From positions 1 to 48,546 of the forward strand of contig JADGJT010000163.1 of assembly GCA_027604005.1 (NCBI GenBank): a DNA stretch of 48,546 nt, in the 5' to 3' direction. Below, one piece after another: positions 1-39,561 of the stretch; position 1 is the first letter of the stretch; each line of letters begins with the position of its first letter. The translations under genes and the position numbers were made by a program. This DNA comes from Dinochytrium kinnereticum. Its lineage: Eukaryota; Chytridiomycota; Chytridiomycetes; Chytridiales; Chytridiaceae. The notes beneath the pieces were generated by a model. That model made no database searches, was not told the origin of the DNA, and was given only the letters and a program-made list of their open reading frames with translations.

Positions 1-175
1 TTAACTTTAACCTTAAACTAACCTACCCTTAATCCTAACCCTAACCTTAACCTTAACCCTAACCCTAACCTTAACTTTAGCCTTAGCCTTACCTTAACTT
101 TATCTCTAACCCTAACCCTAACCCTAAGGGAGGCCCTTGTAACCTTAACCTTAACCCTAACCTTAACCCTAACCA
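1..175. repeat. Degenerate telomeric repeat tract (CCCTAA/CCTTAA)
   Basis: The tract consists of CCCTAA units mixed with many variants (CCTTAA, CTTTAA, CCTTAG). An interruption of unrelated sequence lies at about 128-140. The C-rich strand reads 5' to 3' inward from the left end, which is the orientation expected for a chromosome terminus with TTAGGG telomeres. The variant-rich composition suggests proximal telomere or subtelomere rather than freshly synthesised telomere. Apparent open frames across it are by-products of the 6-bp period. Confidence 0.85.
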
Positions 176-904: not shown

Positions 905-2866
905 CTAATTTTTCCCAAGAACCCAGAAAGTATTCATGGTACCCTTCCCCTTAATATTCATCGTCTCAGGCTCACTAATGCTAAAGTTCTTATCCTTGAT
1001 AAGCTTGAAGGTGTTTTCCGAGATATGAATTTTTCCTGGCTTTGAGGTGGACTCCATACGAGAGGCCGTGTTAACGGTGTCTCCTACAATGCACCAGTGA
1101 GGGTTTTGTTCTCCAAGGATACCAGCCGTGATCTTGCCAGAGTTTAGACCCACGCGAGTCTGAATCTTTTCTCCGTTGAGAGTTCTAAAGTTTTCGGCCA
1201 TTTTGATGACGTCTGATGAAAAGGATTTAAAAAAGAATTGATTAATAAAACTTCACATCGAATAGGAGAAGACATAAGAGAAAAAAGAATGTAAACCAAA
1301 AAAGCGTTGATCATACCAATCGCGAAGTTTGTCATTCTCTCGGCATGATCCCTCACACGGTCAGGAGCACCGCAAACACCAAGGAACGCATCTCCGATCG
1401 TCTCAACCTTGTAAACACCCCACCGCTTCGTCAAGACATCGTACTCTTGCCAAAGCTTATTGAGAGTAGCTAACATGTCTTTGGTCTGCAGCCATTATGT
1501 TAGAAATACGTTCATGTTCGTGTTGAAACTTACACTTGATTTGCTCGTCAAAGTCCCAAAGTTGGTAATATCTGAGAAGAAGACCGTGACAGATTCGAAT
1601 TCTTCAGCGCCAGTCGCCTTTCCACTCTTAAGTTGCTCGATCAATCTGCACAAATATGAATCTTGACCATGAACAAAGTAGCAATATGATACATGTAACA
1701 AAAAAGAAAAAAGAAGGAAAAAGAGACGTACCCTGGAGGAATCAACTTTTCCAGAAGCTTGTCGGCCTGAGCCATCTGCTGCTCGAGCTGGTCGTTCAAA
1801 GCCTCTATCTGACTGGCCTTTTGGTTTTGGGTTTCCTCAAGGGTGGCGTTGACGAGAATCAGGGTCAAAAATACTTTGGCAAAGATATCGGAGATGCAGA
1901 ACATAATTTCGCCGACCTCATAGGATACGATTTTGCTGTTAAAATTGTGTTAGTTATGCATGTACCTTCCGCTAGAATAAAGCCCGTTACATAAAAAAGA
2001 GCAACTAACCTTCTTTGAATGTACCAGGTGACAGTGAAGGAAATCCATGCACCAAGGGTAACAATCTGAGCAGATCGAAGAGACCTTGTATCCAAGCGGC
2101 ACTTTGTATCTCCCCTAATGGCCGAGTTGAACATTTCCATGATATTGTTTAGGCAGTGAATGAAAAAGCAAGAAGAAGCTGTTGCCAGTAACTCGCTGTA
2201 GGGCTGCTTTACCGCTGTCGCAACGAATCCAAGAATGAGAAGACTGTAGTCAGATGTGGCGGTCTCATCGGCCATATTCTCATTCTTGGTGATTTCGGAG
2301 ATAAGGTAGATTCTAGGATTGTCGATGGGTATTAGAAGAGAGAAACTAAATGCATGTCCCTCGAAACTTACAGAATAGGGCAAGTGGCAAGCCATTCCAT
2401 GTATCGGCTTGGGTCGACGGGGTGACCCACATAGTCCATATAGGTTGGAGATAACCGAAAGATCTGGATGATGTACGAGGACATCGCGATGGAGTTGACG
2501 GCGCAAAGGACTAAAGCCAGTGACTTTTTGTACCCAGTCTTAGAGGAAGAATAGGCAATGTACGAGTAAACTACTGCAATGCCGAACGCGGCGGCGGTGT
2601 AGGTGTACCAGTCATCAGTAACGCCACGATCGAACTTCTTGACACGATGGTTGTTGAAGACAACATGAATCATACCACCAACAGTGAATATGAACCACAC
2701 GGCAAAGTTGCGCCAGATGTAAAAGCTGGATCCAGCACTCTGCGTGTCCTTCTTCAACAGCCGAAGACGCTCCTGAACGGTCAATTCTGAGAAACTCAAT
2801 CAGTAAACCAGCAAAGACTGAAAGCAATTAAGATCATAACATCAACTTACTCCCGTCGAGAGACAT
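905..2866 (-). CDS. Rhodopsin-guanylyl cyclase (conventional RGC subunit)
   Basis: Light-sensor enzyme: a microbial-type rhodopsin fused to a class III guanylyl cyclase that makes cGMP. Exons complement(905..1212,1317..1485,1534..1645,1732..1935,2010..2312,2372..2786,2851..2866) give 508 residues with all frames closing. An extra N-terminal membrane helix lies at about 27-49, followed by a seven-helix rhodopsin. Helix C carries RYMEWLATCP with E136 as counterion and T140. Helix G has SDIFAK with D261 and the retinal Schiff-base Lys K265. A coiled-coil linker (about 275-310) ends in KLLEKLIPP. The cyclase keeps metal-binding D338 (FFSDITNF) and D382 (ETIGDAF), the guanine-selective E378 and C447 (HWCIVGD), and N454/R458 (NTASRME). 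All catalytic residues are present, so it should be active as a homodimer. The start gives a 16-nt first exon, the same size as in the divergent partner. Whether it equals published R. globosum RGC1 or RGC2 cannot be decided here. Confidence 0.95.
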
Positions 2867-3429
2867 AGTCGTTCCATCTTTGAAACTTAATCATCAGTGG
2901 CAGAATAAATCACAATGCACTTGCCTGTCGCGTTGGATACTTGGTTGTGAAGGCTAGATCCATGGCCGCAAGACTTACACCTCTTGTTTCCGGGTTGTAC
3001 TTCAAACTCTTTGCACTCGCATGAGCGGCAGGTGGTGTATTGAACTTCCATGATGGTGGTCGACTGAGAAATGAACTTTCAACGGAATTTGTTGGGACGA
3101 CTAAAACTGCAGTCGCAAGCCTTCCGATCACACAATCACATCTCCGGTGGACCTCTCATCACAGCCAGAGCGCAAACCCATTGTTGAGTGACTCATTATT
3201 ATCGTGTGCACTTGGCTAAGAACACCGAGCCCGGAATCCAGACGCGCCATTGTTCCATTTTTCAAAAAGTGTTCTGTGTTTCCGTTAACTGGATTCATTA
3301 TTCTCTTTACCATAATATAGTTGAGAAACAAAAACTTGGTCAACTTAAAACCCAAGGCTCCACCCTAAGCAACGATAGCAAGATCATCCTCCCGCTCGCC
3401 AGACTCAGTAGCGCTCTTGATCCCACGAA
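2867..3429. promoter_or_regulatory. Shared divergent promoter of the RGC/NeoR pair
   Basis: These 563 bp separate the two start codons of head-to-head paralogues that are probably subunits of one receptor, so both promoters and both 5' UTRs must lie here. A near-palindrome TGAGTGACTCA at 3185-3195 contains the AP-1/Gcn4-type core TGACTCA and is the most regulatory-looking element I see; its role is only inferred. A minus-strand open frame (2910-3131) crosses the region but does not join convincingly to the RGC reading frame. Confidence 0.6.
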
Positions 3430-5430
3430 ATGTCTTCCGAGAAAGGTGGGTGTAGACAAGGAGACAGGCTAGGTCTAACATCAGCGCGCTATCGCCCTGC
3501 AGCAAAGTCGGTCCGAGACAAGGTCGGAAAGTCCCACGATGATAGCTATGACTTGAAGCCTATGACGTTCCTGTACGTCAACTACAGCGTGTGGGTGTGC
3601 CTCACTCTGACCAATATCTACTTCAAGCTCTTTGGAGGCCTCAAGACAAAGAAGTTTGACCGTGGCGTGGCTGATAACTGGTACAGAGCGACCGCGTTTA
3701 CTTTTGCCATCGCCTGTGCTTTTGCATATCTCGGATATTTTGGAACAAATAGCCGCGGAAAGAAGAATGTTATATTTGGGATGTTTATGGTGTGCTCAGT
3801 TGTAGGCTTTACTTGGTTTCAGCAATCTCTCCGCGCTACCGTCACCTTGGTGGACCATGCTGGTAACCCCTTGGATGTCTCTAGATACATTGAATGGCTG
3901 CACGATATGCCAGCTCTGTGAGTATTCACGTCCTTATGCACATGTTGTTCTACGAATCGCCGCATTGTAATCTAAGACATCCTAAAACAGGTCATACATC
4001 ATTGGAAGAATCACCAGGGCTGACCCCAAGGAGACTTGGGGTGCCATATCCACCTCTTACTGGCTCACAATTCATGGGTTTTTGAGTGCTCTTGCTAGGC
4101 ATCCTTATCACGAACTGTTTGGGACCGTCTCTATGATCTACTTCATGTACACATGTGGAAACTTTGAAAGGATGTTCCAACCCGCTATTGACGGTGAAAC
4201 AGGTTCCAAGCTTGAGCCCGGGGTTCTTAGAAGCCTGAAGTACATCACGCTTGGATCATGGTGGGGAATTACGATTTTCTGGTACATGCAGAAAAGGCAA
4301 GCACTCTTTTCATTCAAACTTTATACTTCCCTTCCTTGGTATGATTTCTGGCTAACGAGAAAAAAAAAGCCACTTTGTCTCCTTTGCGGCCGGTGAAGCT
4401 CTCATCTGCCTTGGGGAGATTTTTGCCAAGATCGTCTTCATGCTTGTTATCGTCAATAACACAATGGAAGAAGCTCAGTCAGAAAAGGTTGCAATCGCCG
4501 AAAGCATCGCCACGGAGCTCGAAAAAGAAGTAGCTGATTCTGATAAACTTCTGGAAAAGATGATACCTCCAAAGTGAGAATTGGGCCGTGTTACTTCATA
4601 AAACCTTTAACACAGTTTTAAGCGTCTTGGAACAGCTTCGAAGTGGAAAGGCGACTGGCACGGAAGAATTCGGATGCGTCACAGTTTTTTTCTCCGATAT
4701 TGCTAACTTTACTGTTATCTCAAGCAGAACATCTGTAAGAGCTTTTTAACCTCTTTGTTCATCTATTCTAACGATTTTGCGAACAGACCCAGGACATGCT
4801 TGCCTCGTTGAATAAAATGTGGGTTGAATATGATGCTATCTCAAAGAGACATGGCATGTACAAGGTCGAGACCATCGGAGATGCGTTCCTTGGAGTCGTC
4901 GGGGCCCCAGACAGAGTGCCAGACCATGCGGAGCGGGCAGCAAACTTCTCCCTAGGTATTGAGCTATCCTCTCTTATTGGGACCGCAACCTCATTGCATT
5001 CTTTTCCTCTTTGAACCTCCCAACATTCCTTATCATACGTATAGAGGTTTCTGATGTCTCTTCCTGTTCTTTTTGTAGATATTATGGTAATGATCAAGGA
5101 CTTCAAGACGGTAACTGGAGAATCAATCCAAATTCGCGCTGGTCTTGCCTCTGGTCCTATCACAGGCGGAATCCTTGGAGAATCTAACCCTCATTGGTGC
5201 ATTGTTGGAGAAACAGTCAATATCGCATCAAAGATGGAGGCCACCTCCAAGCCTATGATGGTTCATATCAACGAACTCACCTGGGATTTGCTTAAGCCCT
5301 CTGGAAAATACACGTTTTCAGAAGCAGACCCCGTTCCACTCAAGGTAAGAAATACATCAGCCATCAATCCATCTCACTCGCTTCCCAGGGAAAGAACCTT
5401 AGGAGTTTCTTCATCACTGGACGAACCTAA
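3430..5430 (+). CDS. NeoR: NeoR-type near-infrared rhodopsin-guanylyl cyclase subunit
   Basis: Rhodopsin-guanylyl cyclase with the spectral-tuning residues of neorhodopsin. Exons 3430..3445,3503..3917,3991..4296,4370..4573,4623..4734,4787..4955,5079..5344,5389..5430 give 509 residues. Helix C reads RYIEWLHDMP (E136, D140) and helix G GEIFAK (E262, K266). The triple-acid counterion and these numbers match published NeoR as I recall it. The first intron (57 nt, a multiple of three) must be removed to obtain that numbering. A coiled coil precedes the cyclase, which keeps D339, E379, D383, C448 and N455, but has K459 where the transition-state Arg belongs, and E452 in place of Asp in the GDTVN motif. 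A homodimer is therefore expected to be weak or inactive, needing the RGC partner encoded head to head. The intron after 4296 has a GC donor. The last intron (5345-5388) has no counterpart in the partner gene. Confidence 0.95.
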
Positions 5431-33098: not shown

Positions 33099-36000
33099 AT
33101 GCTCCCCCTCCGAGGAAAACAGGCATCTTCAGTCACTGTCGACAGGATCCTCTATTTGCCACGGAAACAACTGTTCACCGAGGAGAGGCCCTTCACGGAA
33201 CTTGCAGCGATTCCAGCCACATTCAACTCGTGGAATGATTACCTACGAGCATTCATAAACCCATGTCTTGAAAACGCCCGTGTCGAGCTGATTCGTGCCG
33301 CAAAGGAGCCCAACCGTACATTCTTTCGAATGCGGATCGTGAAGATGAAGATGATACCACGTCAGAACCTGTGGTTTTTACGGGCCACGAAGACGAAGCG
33401 CTGAAGTTCGGCGACATCTGCTTGGTGTCAAACATAGATAGTTCAGGGCTGCAGAATCCGTACGTGGAGTGCGGCTGGATGGTGGTTCGCAACGTTAAGA
33501 GCATGCCCGACGATAATGAGATTCTATACACGTGTACTGGCTGGAACCTTCCCCAGCCATCCAGCGTAGTTTATTGCTCAGTTTTGGGAACTGCGATACC
33601 TACCGAGAGAGTTTTGGATTCTCTTTGCTCGCCGGAAACACGTTGTCACATCCATTCGAACATTCGTAGTACTGTTTTCAAGGGCCGCAGTGGTTTGGAG
33701 CTTGAATGGGAAGACTTTGACGAGTATCTATTTTCATCGCAGCAATTCAACGGGTTGAATGATTCACAGAGAACGGCCTTAGTGGAGTCGTTTCGGACAG
33801 TTCGGAATGGCGGCATTCAGCTAATTCAAGGTATGCCTCTCCTAGATTGATATGATTCTCTTGCCTATCATTGCACACCAACTAACTTACAACCATGAGG
33901 TCCACTTGGCACCGGGAAAACTCACGCGATCGTCGCGTTGCTCTCTGGCCTTAGCGCCTTCGAAGTCGACAAATCGATACTCCTTTGCGCCCCGACCAAC
34001 GTGGCAATGTCGGACGTGGCAAAGAAGTTTATTGACAAGAGACCTTCGACAATCTCAGATCTTGAAATCTTGATCGTATGCTCGGCAGAACGGGCTCTTG
34101 AACACCTCCCAAAACCTTACCAGGATTTCAACCTTCATTTCCGTGTAAGAAGCGTTGCAATCAAGCTAGATGAACTCCGTATGAGACTTGAGACCGAAGT
34201 TATCCAGTTTGACGACGAGGTGAATGAGGAGAGTACGAGGCTTGAGACCGAAGTTATCCAGTTTGACGACGGACTTAATGAGGAGGATTCTTTCTTGATA
34301 GATAGGAGGCGACTTATTGAAACAAGGTTTTGCAATTTGTACAGAATTGCAAAGGAGTTTCATCCGGTCTTCCTTCACCTGAGTGACTGCGAGGCAAAAT
34401 TGATCGCTGAGGTATATGCTCTTTTGAATCATGGAGTTTCGTCGCATAGTCGTAATCTTGGCAATCAGCCTGCAATGGCAAAAGACCTCATCAAGTGTCA
34501 GGAAGTCTGCCTTAAAATCGCAAGGCTTATCTCCTTTGATAAAAAACGAGACTTGAAGCTCAGGCATGAGACGCAAAAGATTTTTGTTAGGAATCTTCAA
34601 GCATTTTTTCTTCGCAGTGCCCGAGTTTTCTTTTCAACAATCAATGGAGCCATGTCAAAGACGATGTTGAATATTGACTTTAGTGTCGTGGTTATTGACG
34701 AGGCTGCCCAGGTTTGTCCTTAAATTATGTTTTCTGATTTCTCGTTTATGGCACTTGTTTCATAGCCGTACCTAACCTTTGGCTCCTTCGCTGGAAATAG
34801 GCAGTTGAAGCAGAGACGACCTGCATACTTCGAAATAGAGTTGAGGCCGTAATTTTAGTGGGCGACACGAAACAACTTAGCGGGACGGTTTTCTCGAAAG
34901 AATCAATTGAAGTTGGCTACAAGCGGAGTCTGTTTGAGCGTCTCGAAAAGCTGGGTCACCCCGTCCAGATGCTTACGATTCAATATCGAATGCATCCGGA
35001 TATATCAAGGTTCCCCTCGGGAACATTCTATGGGAAAAGTCTCCAGGATAGCTCTGTGGTTCAGGCGAATGTAAAGCCGTGGTATAATCTCTTCCCCCCT
35101 GTCGAGTTTGTGGTTTATAAGCCGACCCAATCTTCCGTCGTCAACGACCAAGGGAGTAGTAGTAATATCGACGAGGCTGAGATGGTCTGCATCCGCCTTT
35201 TTAGCTTTTTATGGACAGTCAAAGACAATTTGACTATTGGAGTAATTTGTCCTTACAAGGCGCAGGCAGAGATATTGCAGAGTATGGTCGAAAGTACCCT
35301 TAACGAGTACAAGAAGAGGATTACGGTCAACACCGTCGATGGCTTTCAGGGACAGGAACGAGATATAATAATTCTTTCTCTTACGAAGACTAGCTATGCT
35401 GGGAGTTTCGTCAACGACGCTCAGAGAACGAACGTATCGATCACAAGGGCAAAGTATTGCCTCTGGGTTTTTGGAGCCTCTAATGCTTTTGAGAATGCGA
35501 AAAGCCATTGGGGGGATTTCGCAAGATACGCAAAATCAATAGGGTTCTATGATCTGCGTCAAAATTTACCGTCTGATATTGATAAGTTCCTAAAGCGTCT
35601 GAGGAAAGACTCTGTCAGCTCTCAAAAACGCCCCGACAAAGGTGAGCTTATTGCGAATCTTCGGCGCTTTGCTCCATATCATTCTTGGAGTGTTATCATC
35701 ACTGAAGACCTCCTGCATGATTTGCGGAACTGTGGAGGGGATGTTCGTTCTTACCTCCTCTCTGCCATTGAAGACATCAAGCTGGGGAGATTCAAATCCT
35801 CAGTAAGGCTTTACCAGAATACTCATCCTGCCGGGAAGTTGTTCTATTCCCGGAGGCTTGATGGTAAGAAGGCCTTGGTCTGGACCATTGAGATTCGACG
35901 AGGTCGGCAAGTTGCTTGCCTCTTGCGGATGGTTCATTCGAGTGGCGTTGCTGAGGTCTGGGAAAGATTCAAAGCCGCGTTTAACCGCCTTTCACCCGAT

Positions 36001-39000
36001 TACGTCGATGTCTGTACTATGAAGGGGGGATTGGTTTCAGAAACCGGTTTCACTCGGCCTCTAGAGGGCGTTAACGTCCCCGATAAGTTTGACTCTTTTG
36101 CAAGGACAGTTTCAGCATCTACAAAAGTCTTTGATGTGACATCGTCAGCGCTGCTTCACTGCCTGCTGCAAGAAACCGAGGAGCACCAAGACCCCAAAGA
36201 ACGGTCTATCGTTTCTCGCCTCTCCCTACCATACCTTCTTGATGATCATCAGGAGGCTGCTATGGATCTCAACGGCTCCGTGGTCATTATCGGACGCGGC
36301 GGCACTGGCAAGACATCGGTGCTGTCGAGAAAACTATCGCTGGTCCATGAGACTTCCATGATAAATGATATGCCACCTCCACGTCAACTCTTTGTGACGC
36401 AGAGTAGAGCTCTTGTAACTGCTATTCGATCCGAATATTTAAGTCTTATGAAGTCTTTTAGACGGGTTCATGAGACGGTTAAAGAAATTGAAACTATCTC
36501 CGAGTCTAATATCATCGAAAAGCCATCTGAGGTTGATAAATCCAGAGGGCATAACGAGGCACCTCAGTTTCTCTCTTTCCTAGATCTTACTATTTTTGTC
36601 GACGATCTTCTTGGAGGAAAGAGGCTTTTTAAAAACGTCGACGACGAGAATCGAGCTGATAGGGAGGCTCTACTGAATGCATCCTCAACTGCATCACTCG
36701 GGATTTCTACAAACGATATCGTGGATTTTCGGTGTTTTGAGCAGGTTTATTACAGGTTCGCATCGGACGACCTGCGCCGAAAGTTCTCCGCAAGTTTTTT
36801 GATGACCGAAATCATGTTCTCTATCAAAAGGGTCGATGACGGTGGACGAAAAAAATATATGTCAAAGACGGAATACGTGGAGCTTGGCTCTCGTACTGAT
36901 GTCAGGGCAGGCTTGCGTGAGCAGATATTCTCATTTTATCTTCGATATGAAGACGAAAAGAGGAAGAGGAACAATATTGATTTACCTGACGTTATGGCTA
37001 ATATTGTGGAGAGGGTTTCGACGTCGAACATTAAAATTCCTCCGATAGACTTCATCTACTTGGATGAAGTACAGGATCTCATGCCAGCCCAATGGCTGTT
37101 GTTTAAATCTTTTATAGGGCCACAAACTCGTTTAACATGTTGCGGAGATCAAGCTCAGGCGATCACCGCAGGGAATCGATTTCGATTTAGTGCGTTGAAA
37201 GATTATCTCTTTAAGGTTTCGGGAGGTCAGGTTCCTGTAGAGCACCAGTTAAGGTTCAACTATCGGACGACCCCGACTATTCTCACGCTGTCAAATTGTG
37301 TTTTAAGCCTCATTCGCCACTTTTTCACGAACGAGATTGATAACATTGCAGATGAGGTCGGGACGGGGTCAGGGATCTTTGTGAAGCCAAGATTATTGCG
37401 CGAGAGCGGCGAGGCTGCTATAAGATTCTTGTTTTCTGAACATCCAGAATTTTCGGCTCATCAGGCTATTCTCGTCCGTGGCCAGGAAGAAAAAAAACGC
37501 CTTGAGGAGATGTTGGCAAAACTTGATTATTCTGCCACTGTCTTGACGGTTTTGGAAGCGAAAGGTCTCGAGTTTAACGATATTGTTCTTTTCAATATGC
37601 TTCAGCATAGCAAGTGTGGGGAGAGTCGGGTGCTATACGGCTTCGACCCCATCTCTGGAATGCGAGTTTCTGCGTTCGATCCATTGAAGCATGGAGGAAT
37701 ATGCCAAATGCTAAAAGAACTTTATGTCGCAGTCACTCGTGCCAAACTTCGTCTTCTTTTTGTTGACGAAAGTGAAGACCGAGAGGTTTACAAGCACCTT
37801 TTTGGTGACGCGCTAGAGTGGACAAGCTTTTCGACAGAGTTACCTATCGCCCAAAACTCCACTAGCACGAAAGAGGAGTGGAATGAGCGCGCTGCTCAAT
37901 ACCTAGCCTCAAATCTATTGAATGAAGCGAGAACGGCTTATGAAAGAGCTGGTAATATTCTTGAGGCGACGAAGATCGGCGCTAAGCTCCTTAGAGAGAA
38001 GTTTGAGTACTCCTTAAGGCCCGAGGACGCTAAAGCCTGTGCAAAGATTTATAAGGAGATTGGAGAGCTGAAGCAGGCCGCCGATCTGCTATTCCGAGTG
38101 CACGAATTCAATGGAGCCGCTGAACTGTACGAAACACTCAAAGATCCTGTGCGCGTGCTTCGTTGCTACAGCGAGGGGAAACTATTCGAGAAGCTTTACG
38201 ATGCAATTGAAAAGCACTCGGATGCAGTTGGGGCTGGCATTGCAGATCGACTGTACGAAAATTGTGCAGCTTACTTTTGCGGATTCAATCCTGTCAGGAC
38301 GATAAAATGCCTGAATGCTATTAGTAATTCTGAAAGAGCTGCAACATTTTTAGAGGCGCGTTTCACAGGGAGAAGTAAGACGGATATTTCTTCAGATATG
38401 TTATTGAGGTTTTACGTCCAAAAAAGCCAACTGAAGCGTGGGCTATTGTTTTTGCATGGTATTGGACGGGACGACTTGGGGTATAAGTTGATTTTTGACT
38501 TTCCAGAAATCGACCAGTCCAAAGCAGAAAAGGAGCAGATAAAAGTGAAGCTTGCATACTTTGATTCGGAACTGAGTGCGACTATCAAGCGGTTCAATGA
38601 GTCAAATACCCTCCTGGCTTTGACTTTTGAGGAGATTGTTGATACGATGCTAGAGGAGGCCAGCAAGCATATCGGGCAGAAGCTCTTTGGTGACGTTAAG
38701 CATTTTAGAGCATCTATCCGAAGCTTCAAACAAGGCGTTAAGGTCACGAGAGGAAGTATAGGGGCTCTCATGGCGTTCATTTTAGTCTCCCGTTTGCTTC
38801 TTTACCTTGGGAATATGCGTAGCCGTTCGAACCTAACGATCATGGTCCTCTGCACTAAGTTCATGAATTGCTTTATGGAGGCCAATACTAGCTACAAACC
38901 CTTGCTTCCTTTCACTCCGAAAGATTCGTTGAAGGGAATGTTGGATTCTAATATTAAGCTGCTGGAAAGGCTACAGAGCATTGAAAATGCCGCATTGAAT

Positions 39001-39561
39001 TGGACAAAGGACGCACGCGAATTTTCATGGTCGGTTCCTGGCTTTTTCAAGGATATCGTACAAAAAGATATCGCTAGGATCGGTGCGGCAATGGTCTTTG
39101 TTTGCAAGCCTCAATTGAAATCCATCCCATCAGCGCTTGTTGAGCCGAAAGTTTTAAATTACAGAGGCCTTCGATTGCCGCTTTTTGATCAGTTCAAAGA
39201 GGTTTATACTTATTTGTTTTCTGCTGAGGGCGGAGTAAGTAAAGACGCACAGAAGGCCTTTTGGGAGGCTGGATTGAATCATTGCGGTTCGTTTATGCTT
39301 ATGAGCTCTTTGGTATCCATGTGTGTGAATGATATTGAACGTTGGGATGACCTGGAAATTGATGCTCTGGCAGCATTCTACAAGCGAGAGTTTAAAGGTA
39401 CATCTTCTCTTTTCCCTCTATTTACCGTATTTTCTTCCTTCTTCCTTTTGGAGTTAACCTTTGTTCGACATTACTGATAATTCATAATGCAAGGCGATAA
39501 CGTTCAAGAACGCCGAAACAGCGTTTTTTGTTTCTCACAAGATCCGTCGATGCTCAAGTAG
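33099..39561 (+). CDS. Tandem SF1 helicase: UPF1/SEN1-like plus UvrD/TRANK1-like
   Basis: Probable ATP-dependent nucleic-acid helicase of about 2050 residues with two unrelated SF1 modules. Model: 33099..33315, 33366..33830, 33900..34711, 34801..39397, 39494..39561. Module 1 (SF1B) has Walker A GPLGTGKT (228-235), DEAAQ (494-498), GDTKQL, QYRMHPDIS, VDGFQGQERD and NVSITRAK. Module 2 (SF1A) has GRGGTGKT (996-1003), DEVQD (1253-1257), GDQAQAI, NYRTTP, LEAKGLEF and VAVTRAK, resembling TRANK1-type helicases. A helical-repeat (TPR-like) region follows (from about 37870). Both ATPase sites look intact. The 5' end is uncertain: two frames are open at 33049-33238, the 50-nt first intron is inferred from a frame change, and no upstream exon could be fixed. 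If the last intron is retained, the protein ends at 39477 instead. Confidence 0.85.
34187..34294 (+). repeat. 54-bp tandem duplication inside the helicase coding sequence
   Basis: Two adjacent 54-bp copies (34187-34240 and 34241-34294) share an identical first 30 nt. They encode LETEVIQFDD followed by a diverged acidic segment. The unit is 18 codons, so the frame is kept. It lies between the Walker A and DEAAQ motifs of module 1, in an insertion that is probably a coiled coil. Confidence 0.9.

What the first reader, a model, noticed from the sequence alone, without database searches (positions are those of the whole stretch)
905..5430. Head-to-head rhodopsin-guanylyl cyclase pair forming a likely heterodimeric near-infrared photoreceptor
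Two paralogous rhodopsin-cyclases are transcribed divergently from one 563-bp region. One is a conventional RGC (E136/T140/D261/K265), the other a NeoR-type subunit (E136/D140/E262/K266). From published work I recall that NeoR needs an RGC partner for activity; here the genome places the two subunits as a bidirectional pair, which would keep them co-expressed in equal amount. Which RGC (1 or 2) is adjacent is not something I can recall as described.
Basis: partly seen in the sequence, partly recalled or inferred. Interest (0 to 1): 0.9.

Follow-up and report, generated by a model that had tools for sequence, protein, structure and literature searches.

The report
Head-to-head neorhodopsin and rhodopsin-cyclase genes
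In the chytrid fungus Dinochytrium kinnereticum, a gene for an ordinary rhodopsin-cyclase and a gene for a neorhodopsin-type partner lie head to head, 378 bases apart; together they likely make a two-part light sensor of a kind already described in related fungi, so this is a further example rather than a new system.

Summary
Window 905-3051 (-) encodes a 554-aa conventional rhodopsin-guanylyl cyclase (gene A); 3430-5430 (+) encodes a 509-aa NeoR-type subunit (gene B) with E136/D140/E262 and K266. The window is a Dinochytrium kinnereticum contig. A 49-row tree puts B with NeoR-type proteins and A with NeoR-partner RGCs, each 100/100. This arrangement, and the idea of bidirectional transcription, are already in print (PMC8815786; PMC12264004). 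Three details go beyond the passages I read: (1) a third RGC, gene C, on another contig, belongs to the homodimer-type lineage and is not an RGC2; (2) gene A has an N-terminal Cys/His module shared with Blastocladiella RGC and not found in 17 of 17 NeoR-type proteins; (3) gene B keeps N455 but has K459, half of the published NxxxR loss. Co-expression, pairing and absorption are untested here. The key survey (Broser 2023, PNAS) is not held, so these details may already be published.

The parts
905..3051 (-). Gene A: conventional RGC, 554 aa, exons 3051-2925, 2877-2851, 2786-2372, 2312-2010, 1935-1732, 1645-1534, 1485-1317, 1212-905; counterions E182/T186/D307, retinal lysine K311, cyclase D384/E424/D428/C493/N500/R504
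   Evidence: Spliced translation without stops; residues from the alignment; Pfam rhodopsin and guanylate cyclase; partner-RGC group 100/100
3430..5430 (+). Gene B: NeoR-type subunit, 509 aa, exons 3430-3445, 3503-3917, 3991-4296, 4370-4573, 4623-4734, 4787-4955, 5079-5344, 5389-5430; E136/D140/E262/K266, D339/E379/D383/C448, N455/K459
   Evidence: Spliced translation without stops and residue numbers; NeoR-type group 100/100 (run with the earlier 528-aa model)
3052..3429 (.). 378-bp region between the two start codons; would hold both 5' leaders and any shared promoter
   Evidence: Length and sequence; promoter function inferred from position only
2947..3030 (-). N-terminal Cys/His module of gene A (CRSCECKEFEVQPGNKRCKSCGHGSSLH), predicted metal-binding
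   Evidence: Pattern scan; six Cys/His invariant in 15 sequences chosen because they carry the motif; AlphaFold2 mean pLDDT 82.9, no significant fold match
3446..3502 (+). 57-nt in-frame intron of gene B, kept as coding in the public model P0001
   Evidence: Comparison with C. lagenaria P0002 and P. planicorne P0003
4297..4369 (+). GC-AG intron of gene B, at the same column and phase as a GT-AG intron of A
2878..2924 (-). GC-AG intron of gene A after the exon that holds the Cys/His module

Best explanation
The two genes likely encode the two subunits of a heterodimeric rhodopsin-guanylyl cyclase, in which the visible-light subunit A would switch on cGMP synthesis and the NeoR-type subunit B is predicted to complete the catalytic site and tune the response with a far-red/UV-switchable retinal. 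Shown here: both genes are intact and divergent, with 378 bp between start codons; B has the NeoR counterion triad and retinal lysine and groups with NeoR-type proteins; A has conventional counterions and a complete set of cyclase residues including N500 and R504; B has Lys in place of the transition-state Arg. Inferred from R. globosum: obligate pairing, one productive active site (base-recognition residues E424/C493 from A, metal aspartates D339/D383 from B), far-red absorption, and a role in zoospore light orientation. Inferred from position alone: that both genes are driven from the shared region.
For: B has E136/D140/E262/K266 at the R. globosum NeoR numbers. NeoR-type 16 rows and partner RGC 16 rows each form one side of a branch at 100/100 in a 49-row tree. 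Lys at the NxxxR Arg, as in R. globosum NeoR. Only three microbial rhodopsin loci were found in the assembly. A NeoR-type protein and a partner RGC lie on contigs of equal length in 6 of 8 species with both classes retrieved, D. kinnereticum included. Head-to-head clusters and obligate heterodimers are published for R. globosum (passages).
Against: No transcript, spectrum or activity data for this fungus. In 2 of 8 species (Phlyctochytrium bullatum, Chytriomyces sp. MP71) the two classes are on contigs of different length. B's cyclase is slightly closer to gene C (64%) than to A (60%). B keeps N455 where R. globosum NeoR has T455. The isolated cyclase domain of R. globosum RGC1 is active without NeoR, and photoswitching NeoR gave no significant activity change at saturating GTP, so both obligate pairing and tuning may be weaker than stated. 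A search for words shared by the A/B gap and the 500 bp upstream of C gave no excess over shuffles.
Confidence: 0.8

Rival explanations
1. A works as a homodimer, like Blastocladiella RGC, and B is a separate or merely modulatory sensor that lies beside it.
For: A has every catalytic residue checked, including N500/R504, and the Cys/His module of homodimer RGCs. The isolated R. globosum RGC1 cyclase domain is active alone.
Against: A groups with the NeoR-partner RGCs and not with the homodimer-type lineage. Full-length R. globosum RGC1 and RGC2 are reported active only with NeoR.
Confidence: 0.08
2. B's main partner is gene C on contig C491, not A.
For: B-C cyclase identity 64% against B-A 60%.
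Against: C groups with Blastocladiomycota RGCs and other C-type proteins and lies on another contig. A four-point identity difference says little about pairing.
Confidence: 0.05
3. The head-to-head position is a relic of an old inverted duplication and carries no shared regulation. This concerns co-expression only and does not exclude the heterodimer.
For: A and B share five intron positions, so they arose by duplication; no shared regulatory words with gene C were found.
Against: Equal contig lengths in 6 of 8 species, in both NeoR subgroups of the tree, suggest that linkage has been kept. R. globosum transcripts of all three genes peak in zoospores.
Confidence: 0.25

Closest known systems
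NeoR / RGC1 / RGC2 cluster of Rhizoclosmatium globosum (PMC7655827, PMC8815786, PMC12264004)
   Same: NeoR on the opposite strand to a partner RGC; same counterion triad; same residue numbers in NeoR; Lys at 459
   Different: One partner RGC here, two in tandem there; N455 here, T455 there; a C-type RGC on another contig here, not mentioned for R. globosum (three RGCs reported)
NeoR P0003 and RGC P0009 of Phlyctochytrium planicorne (public proteins, no paper seen)
   Same: 79% (B) and 76% (A) identical rhodopsin parts; both on a contig of 57,334 bases; N and K in the NeoR cyclase; Cys/His module on the RGC
   Different: Orientation and gap there were not seen; no DNA was fetched
Homodimeric RGC of Blastocladiella emersonii (BeGC1/BeCyclOp, P0050)
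   Same: Rhodopsin-cyclase fusion with E/T/D/K residues and NxxxR, as in A and C; N-terminal Cys/His module, as in A
   Different: A groups elsewhere; gene C is the D. kinnereticum member of the same broad lineage; [quoted passage not shown]

Membership tests
Neorhodopsin (NeoR), gene B | Counterion triad E136/D140/E262 with K266 | tested here: met
   same numbers as R. globosum NeoR
Neorhodopsin (NeoR), gene B | Groups with NeoR-type proteins | tested here: met
   16 rows, 100/100. R. globosum NeoR itself was not retrieved; Rhizoclosmatium sp. JEL0117 P0032 stands for the genus
Neorhodopsin (NeoR), gene B | NxxxR motif lost in the cyclase (T455/K459 in R. globosum) | tested here: inconclusive
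   K459 met, but N455 is kept; P. planicorne P0003 and JEL 0842 P0006 also show N and K
Neorhodopsin (NeoR), gene B | Far-red absorption, bistability, strong fluorescence | not testable with these tools
   Needs purified protein
NeoR-partner RGC (RGC1/2 kind), gene A | Conventional E/T/D/K residues and a complete cyclase set with NxxxR | tested here: met
NeoR-partner RGC (RGC1/2 kind), gene A | Groups with R. globosum, Obelidium and Chytriomyces confervae RGCs | tested here: met
   16 rows, 100/100; one R. globosum RGC (P0014) was retrieved, not both
NeoR-partner RGC (RGC1/2 kind), gene A | Inactive at full length without NeoR | not testable with these tools
   Needs expression
Homodimeric RGC (Blastocladiella kind), considered for gene A | Groups with Blastocladiomycota RGCs | tested here: not met
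   A is in the partner group; C, not A, groups on the Blastocladiomycota side
Bidirectional, co-regulated gene pair | Divergent genes with a short shared 5' region | tested here: met
   378 bp between start codons
Bidirectional, co-regulated gene pair | Correlated transcription from the shared region | not testable with these tools
   No expression data for this species

The most novel reading that the evidence does not exclude
The heterodimer is asymmetric outside the membrane too: the visible-light subunit keeps an ancestral N-terminal metal-binding module inherited from homodimeric RGCs, the NeoR subunit has lost it, and this single copy per dimer sets which subunit activates, keeps dark activity low or anchors the receptor in the zoospore eye. 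The same fungus keeps a homodimer-type RGC as a second, NeoR-independent light input.
Probability: 0.25. Interest if true: 0.5.

Novelty: new member of a known kind. Interest (0 to 1): 0.25.

Why it matters
It gives a complete NeoR/partner pair from Chytridiaceae, with corrected gene models that could be expressed directly. Equal contig lengths in both NeoR subgroups suggest that the linkage is old. The NeoR here has only half of the published catalytic loss, which separates the effects of N455 and K459 in a natural protein. An N-terminal Cys/His module, missed by the public model of gene A, is present in partner and Blastocladiomycota RGCs and was not found in NeoR-type proteins; deletion tests of it would bear on what the N-terminus does in light regulation, which the papers leave open.

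Tried and rejected
Naming A as RGC1 or RGC2: set aside as ill-posed (identities).

Gene C as the missing tandem RGC2, split off by the assembly: not supported. The tree puts C in another lineage, and by eye the C491 end upstream of C has no telomere-like repeat. Chromosome positions of both contigs stay open.

Shared regulatory words between the A/B gap and 500 bp upstream of C: 22 shared 7-mers against a shuffled mean of 21.9, 3 shared 8-mers against 5.9, no 9-mer (single-base shuffles).

Known fold or family for the N-terminal module: no Pfam match near its cut-off (best on that part E 0.17 in P0009 and 1.2 in A); PDB profile search best E 0.073, RNA polymerase subunit RPB12; Foldseek best E 0.67, top rows mostly rubredoxins, none significant. 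PDB sequence search with B's first exon only (old, unspliced reading): rhodopsin-phosphodiesterase at E 0.0019.

Print on a zinc or cysteine N-terminus in RGCs: searches (listings only; several hits, among them papers that mention zinc, were not opened); the word zinc has 0 hits in the main text of PMC12264004, PMC8575461, PMC8815786, PMC4569695, PMC5967339 and PMC4046227. Supplements were not looked at.

Full report
What is there. The window is contig C163 of a 22.4-Mb assembly in 558 contigs. It is a Dinochytrium kinnereticum contig: two proteins of that species lie on a contig of exactly 48,546 bases and match the two genes over the queried regions, P0008 at 100% and P0001 at 96%. NCBI taxonomy places the species in Chytridiales, Chytridiaceae.

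Gene models. Gene A (minus strand, 905-3051) has eight exons and 554 aa. Gene B (plus strand, 3430-5430) has eight exons and 509 aa. My first B model had 528 aa. Comparison with C. lagenaria and P. planicorne showed a 57-nt in-frame intron at 3446-3502; with it removed, the key residues are E136, D140, E262, K266, D339, E379, D383, C448, N455 and K459, at the same numbers as those given for R. globosum NeoR. The public models differ: P0001 keeps that intron, has one Cys in place of 13 residues at a GC-AG intron and ends early, and P0008 lacks the first 46 residues of A. The alignments, tree and identity figures used the 528-aa B model.

The gap. The conserved first exon puts A's start at 3051, so the start codons are 378 bp apart.

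Classification. The three protein searches returned 70 different proteins (7, 19 and 48 rows, four of the last already seen; one search scored only the 7994 candidates sharing most words). I put 61 of the 70, with my three models, into one alignment of 64 rows: P0001 and P0008 were replaced by my models, and P0064-P0070 (255-283 aa) were left out. For the tree I dropped 15 of the 64 rows (fragments, a synthetic construct, the public duplicate of gene C and some rows of unnamed sources), leaving 49. NeoR-type (16 rows), partner RGC (16) and C-type (7) each form one side of a branch, with support 100/100, 100/100 and 100/99; C-type, three Blastocladiomycota and six rows without a named species form one group (100/99). 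Groups were set from residues and search matches before the tree was made, and seven rows were in no group. The root is at the midpoint, for drawing only.

Residues. In one search, the 17 NeoR-type rows have E or Q at 136 (Q in P0007, P0035, P0041, P0051), D, S or T at 140 (S in both C. lagenaria proteins, T in P0051) and E at 262. At the NxxxR Arg position, 15 of 17 have Lys; C. lagenaria P0002 aligns a Thr because its model skips that part, and P0051 has no cyclase. The Asn position varies (N, S, V, T, A, or a gap). B has N455/K459, so it keeps half of the motif reported as absent in R. globosum NeoR. Lys at that Arg is not confined to NeoR-type proteins: P0022 and P0048, with conventional counterions, have it too.

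Other rhodopsins in the genome. A Bac_rhodopsin search found three loci: A, B and gene C on contig C491. Gene C (519 aa, spliced) has conventional counterions and a full catalytic set and groups with the homodimer-type lineage. It lies on a 14,010-base contig, so 'unlinked' means only 'on another contig'. A second C-type protein labelled D. kinnereticum (P0028, contig of 41,772 bases) is not in this assembly: a search with it returned A, B, C and weaker cyclases. Carotenoid oxygenases match at three contigs, SQS/phytoene-synthase-family genes at two, and cyclic-nucleotide-binding domains in 28 matches; none was examined further.

Linkage in other species. No DNA of other species was fetched, so I used equal contig length within a species as a proxy. 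Of 8 species with both classes retrieved, 6 match: D. kinnereticum 48,546; P. planicorne 57,334; C. lagenaria 396,785; Chytridiales sp. JEL 0842 65,336; Chytriomyces hyalinus 89,022; Entophlyctis luteolus 122,389. Two do not: P. bullatum (35,882 and 10,095) and Chytriomyces sp. MP71 (190,912 and 58,084, the latter an RGC fragment). Orientation was seen only in D. kinnereticum.

The N-terminal module. Gene A begins with a Cys/His motif whose C8, C11, C13, C25, C28 and H35 are invariant in 15 sequences that I chose because they carry it, among them Blastocladiella RGC and one Allomyces. By a looser pattern on the first 110 residues it is present in 11 of 17 partner RGCs, 3 of 3 Blastocladiomycota, 2 of 7 C-type and 0 of 17 NeoR-type proteins. 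Five of the six partner RGCs without it begin downstream of its start or are fragments, so absence there may be annotation; two NeoR models also begin inside the first membrane helix. For this fungus it is clearer: an uninterrupted six-frame scan shows the pattern in the 48.5-kb window only in gene A, and not in 7 kb around gene C; a motif split by an intron would be missed. A search of the assembly with A's 42 residues found only gene A. AlphaFold2 gives mean pLDDT 82.9, but no fold match is significant, so metal binding is a prediction. In print, removing residues 1-43 of Catenaria RGC is said not to impede but to increase activity, and removing residues 1-90 of Blastocladiella RGC raises dark activity and lowers light-induced activity. 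In BeRGC P0050 the motif ends at residue 39, so both cuts would remove it if Catenaria has it at the same place, which I did not check.

What is known. Passages of PMC8815786 state that the three R. globosum genes are clustered, RGC1 and RGC2 in tandem and NeoR on the complementary strand, and propose concerted bidirectional transcription. Passages of PMC12264004 repeat this, call the arrangement common for heterodimeric RGC genes in various chytrids (citing Broser 2023), and report transcript levels peaking in zoospores. I read the Introduction of PMC12264004 in full and section 10 of PMC8815786 in full; PMC7655827, PMC9616733, PMC8575461, PMC4569695, PMC5967339 and PMC4046227 were seen as passages, and all others as listings. 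Broser 2023 is not held, so I cannot say whether it covers this species, the C-type receptor beside the pair, or the N-terminal module. A search for 'Dinochytrium' listed four papers, none with a title about rhodopsins; they were not opened.

Verdict. A real, intact NeoR/partner pair in the arrangement known from R. globosum: a new member of a known kind. The additional observations (C-type receptor on another contig, asymmetric N-terminal module, partial NxxxR loss) are modest and testable.

Noticed in passing
window 1-172: Degenerate CCCTAA/CCTTAA repeats at the contig start, about 0.7 kb beyond the end of gene A, so the pair may be near a chromosome end. An 18-base telomere-like pattern occurs in 7 contigs of the assembly, this one among them.
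   Followed up: partly
G000 contig C491, 10249-12419 (-), read as L009: Third RGC (gene C), homodimer-type lineage, without the Cys/His module that its relatives in P. planicorne (P0029) and C. lagenaria (P0046) carry.
   Followed up: yes
protein P0028: A second C-type RGC labelled D. kinnereticum, 84% identical to gene C over the matched part, not found in this assembly; perhaps another isolate or assembly.
   Followed up: partly
proteins P0002 and P0005 (Chytridium lagenaria); P0007, P0035, P0041, P0051 (Chytriomyces): NeoR-type proteins with natural changes in the counterion triad: S at 140, Q at 136, and Q with T in P0051; Chytriomyces sp. MP71 has four NeoR-type proteins on contigs of one length, 190,912.
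   Followed up: no
proteins P0022 and P0048: RGCs with conventional counterions but Lys at the NxxxR Arg, as in NeoR; P0022 branches near the NeoR side of the tree, unresolved. It might show that the cyclase changed before the chromophore pocket.
   Followed up: no
window 3178-3254: In the shared gap, CCATTGTT twice (3178, 3247) and one TGACTCA, a bZIP-like site (recalled), at 3189; may be chance.
   Followed up: partly
public models P0001 and P0008: Both public gene models of the pair have errors: a kept intron, a skipped stretch at a GC-AG intron and an early end in B, and a missing first exon in A.
   Followed up: yes
window 34801-39477: Open frame of 1558 aa that looks helicase-like by eye; not searched.
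   Followed up: no
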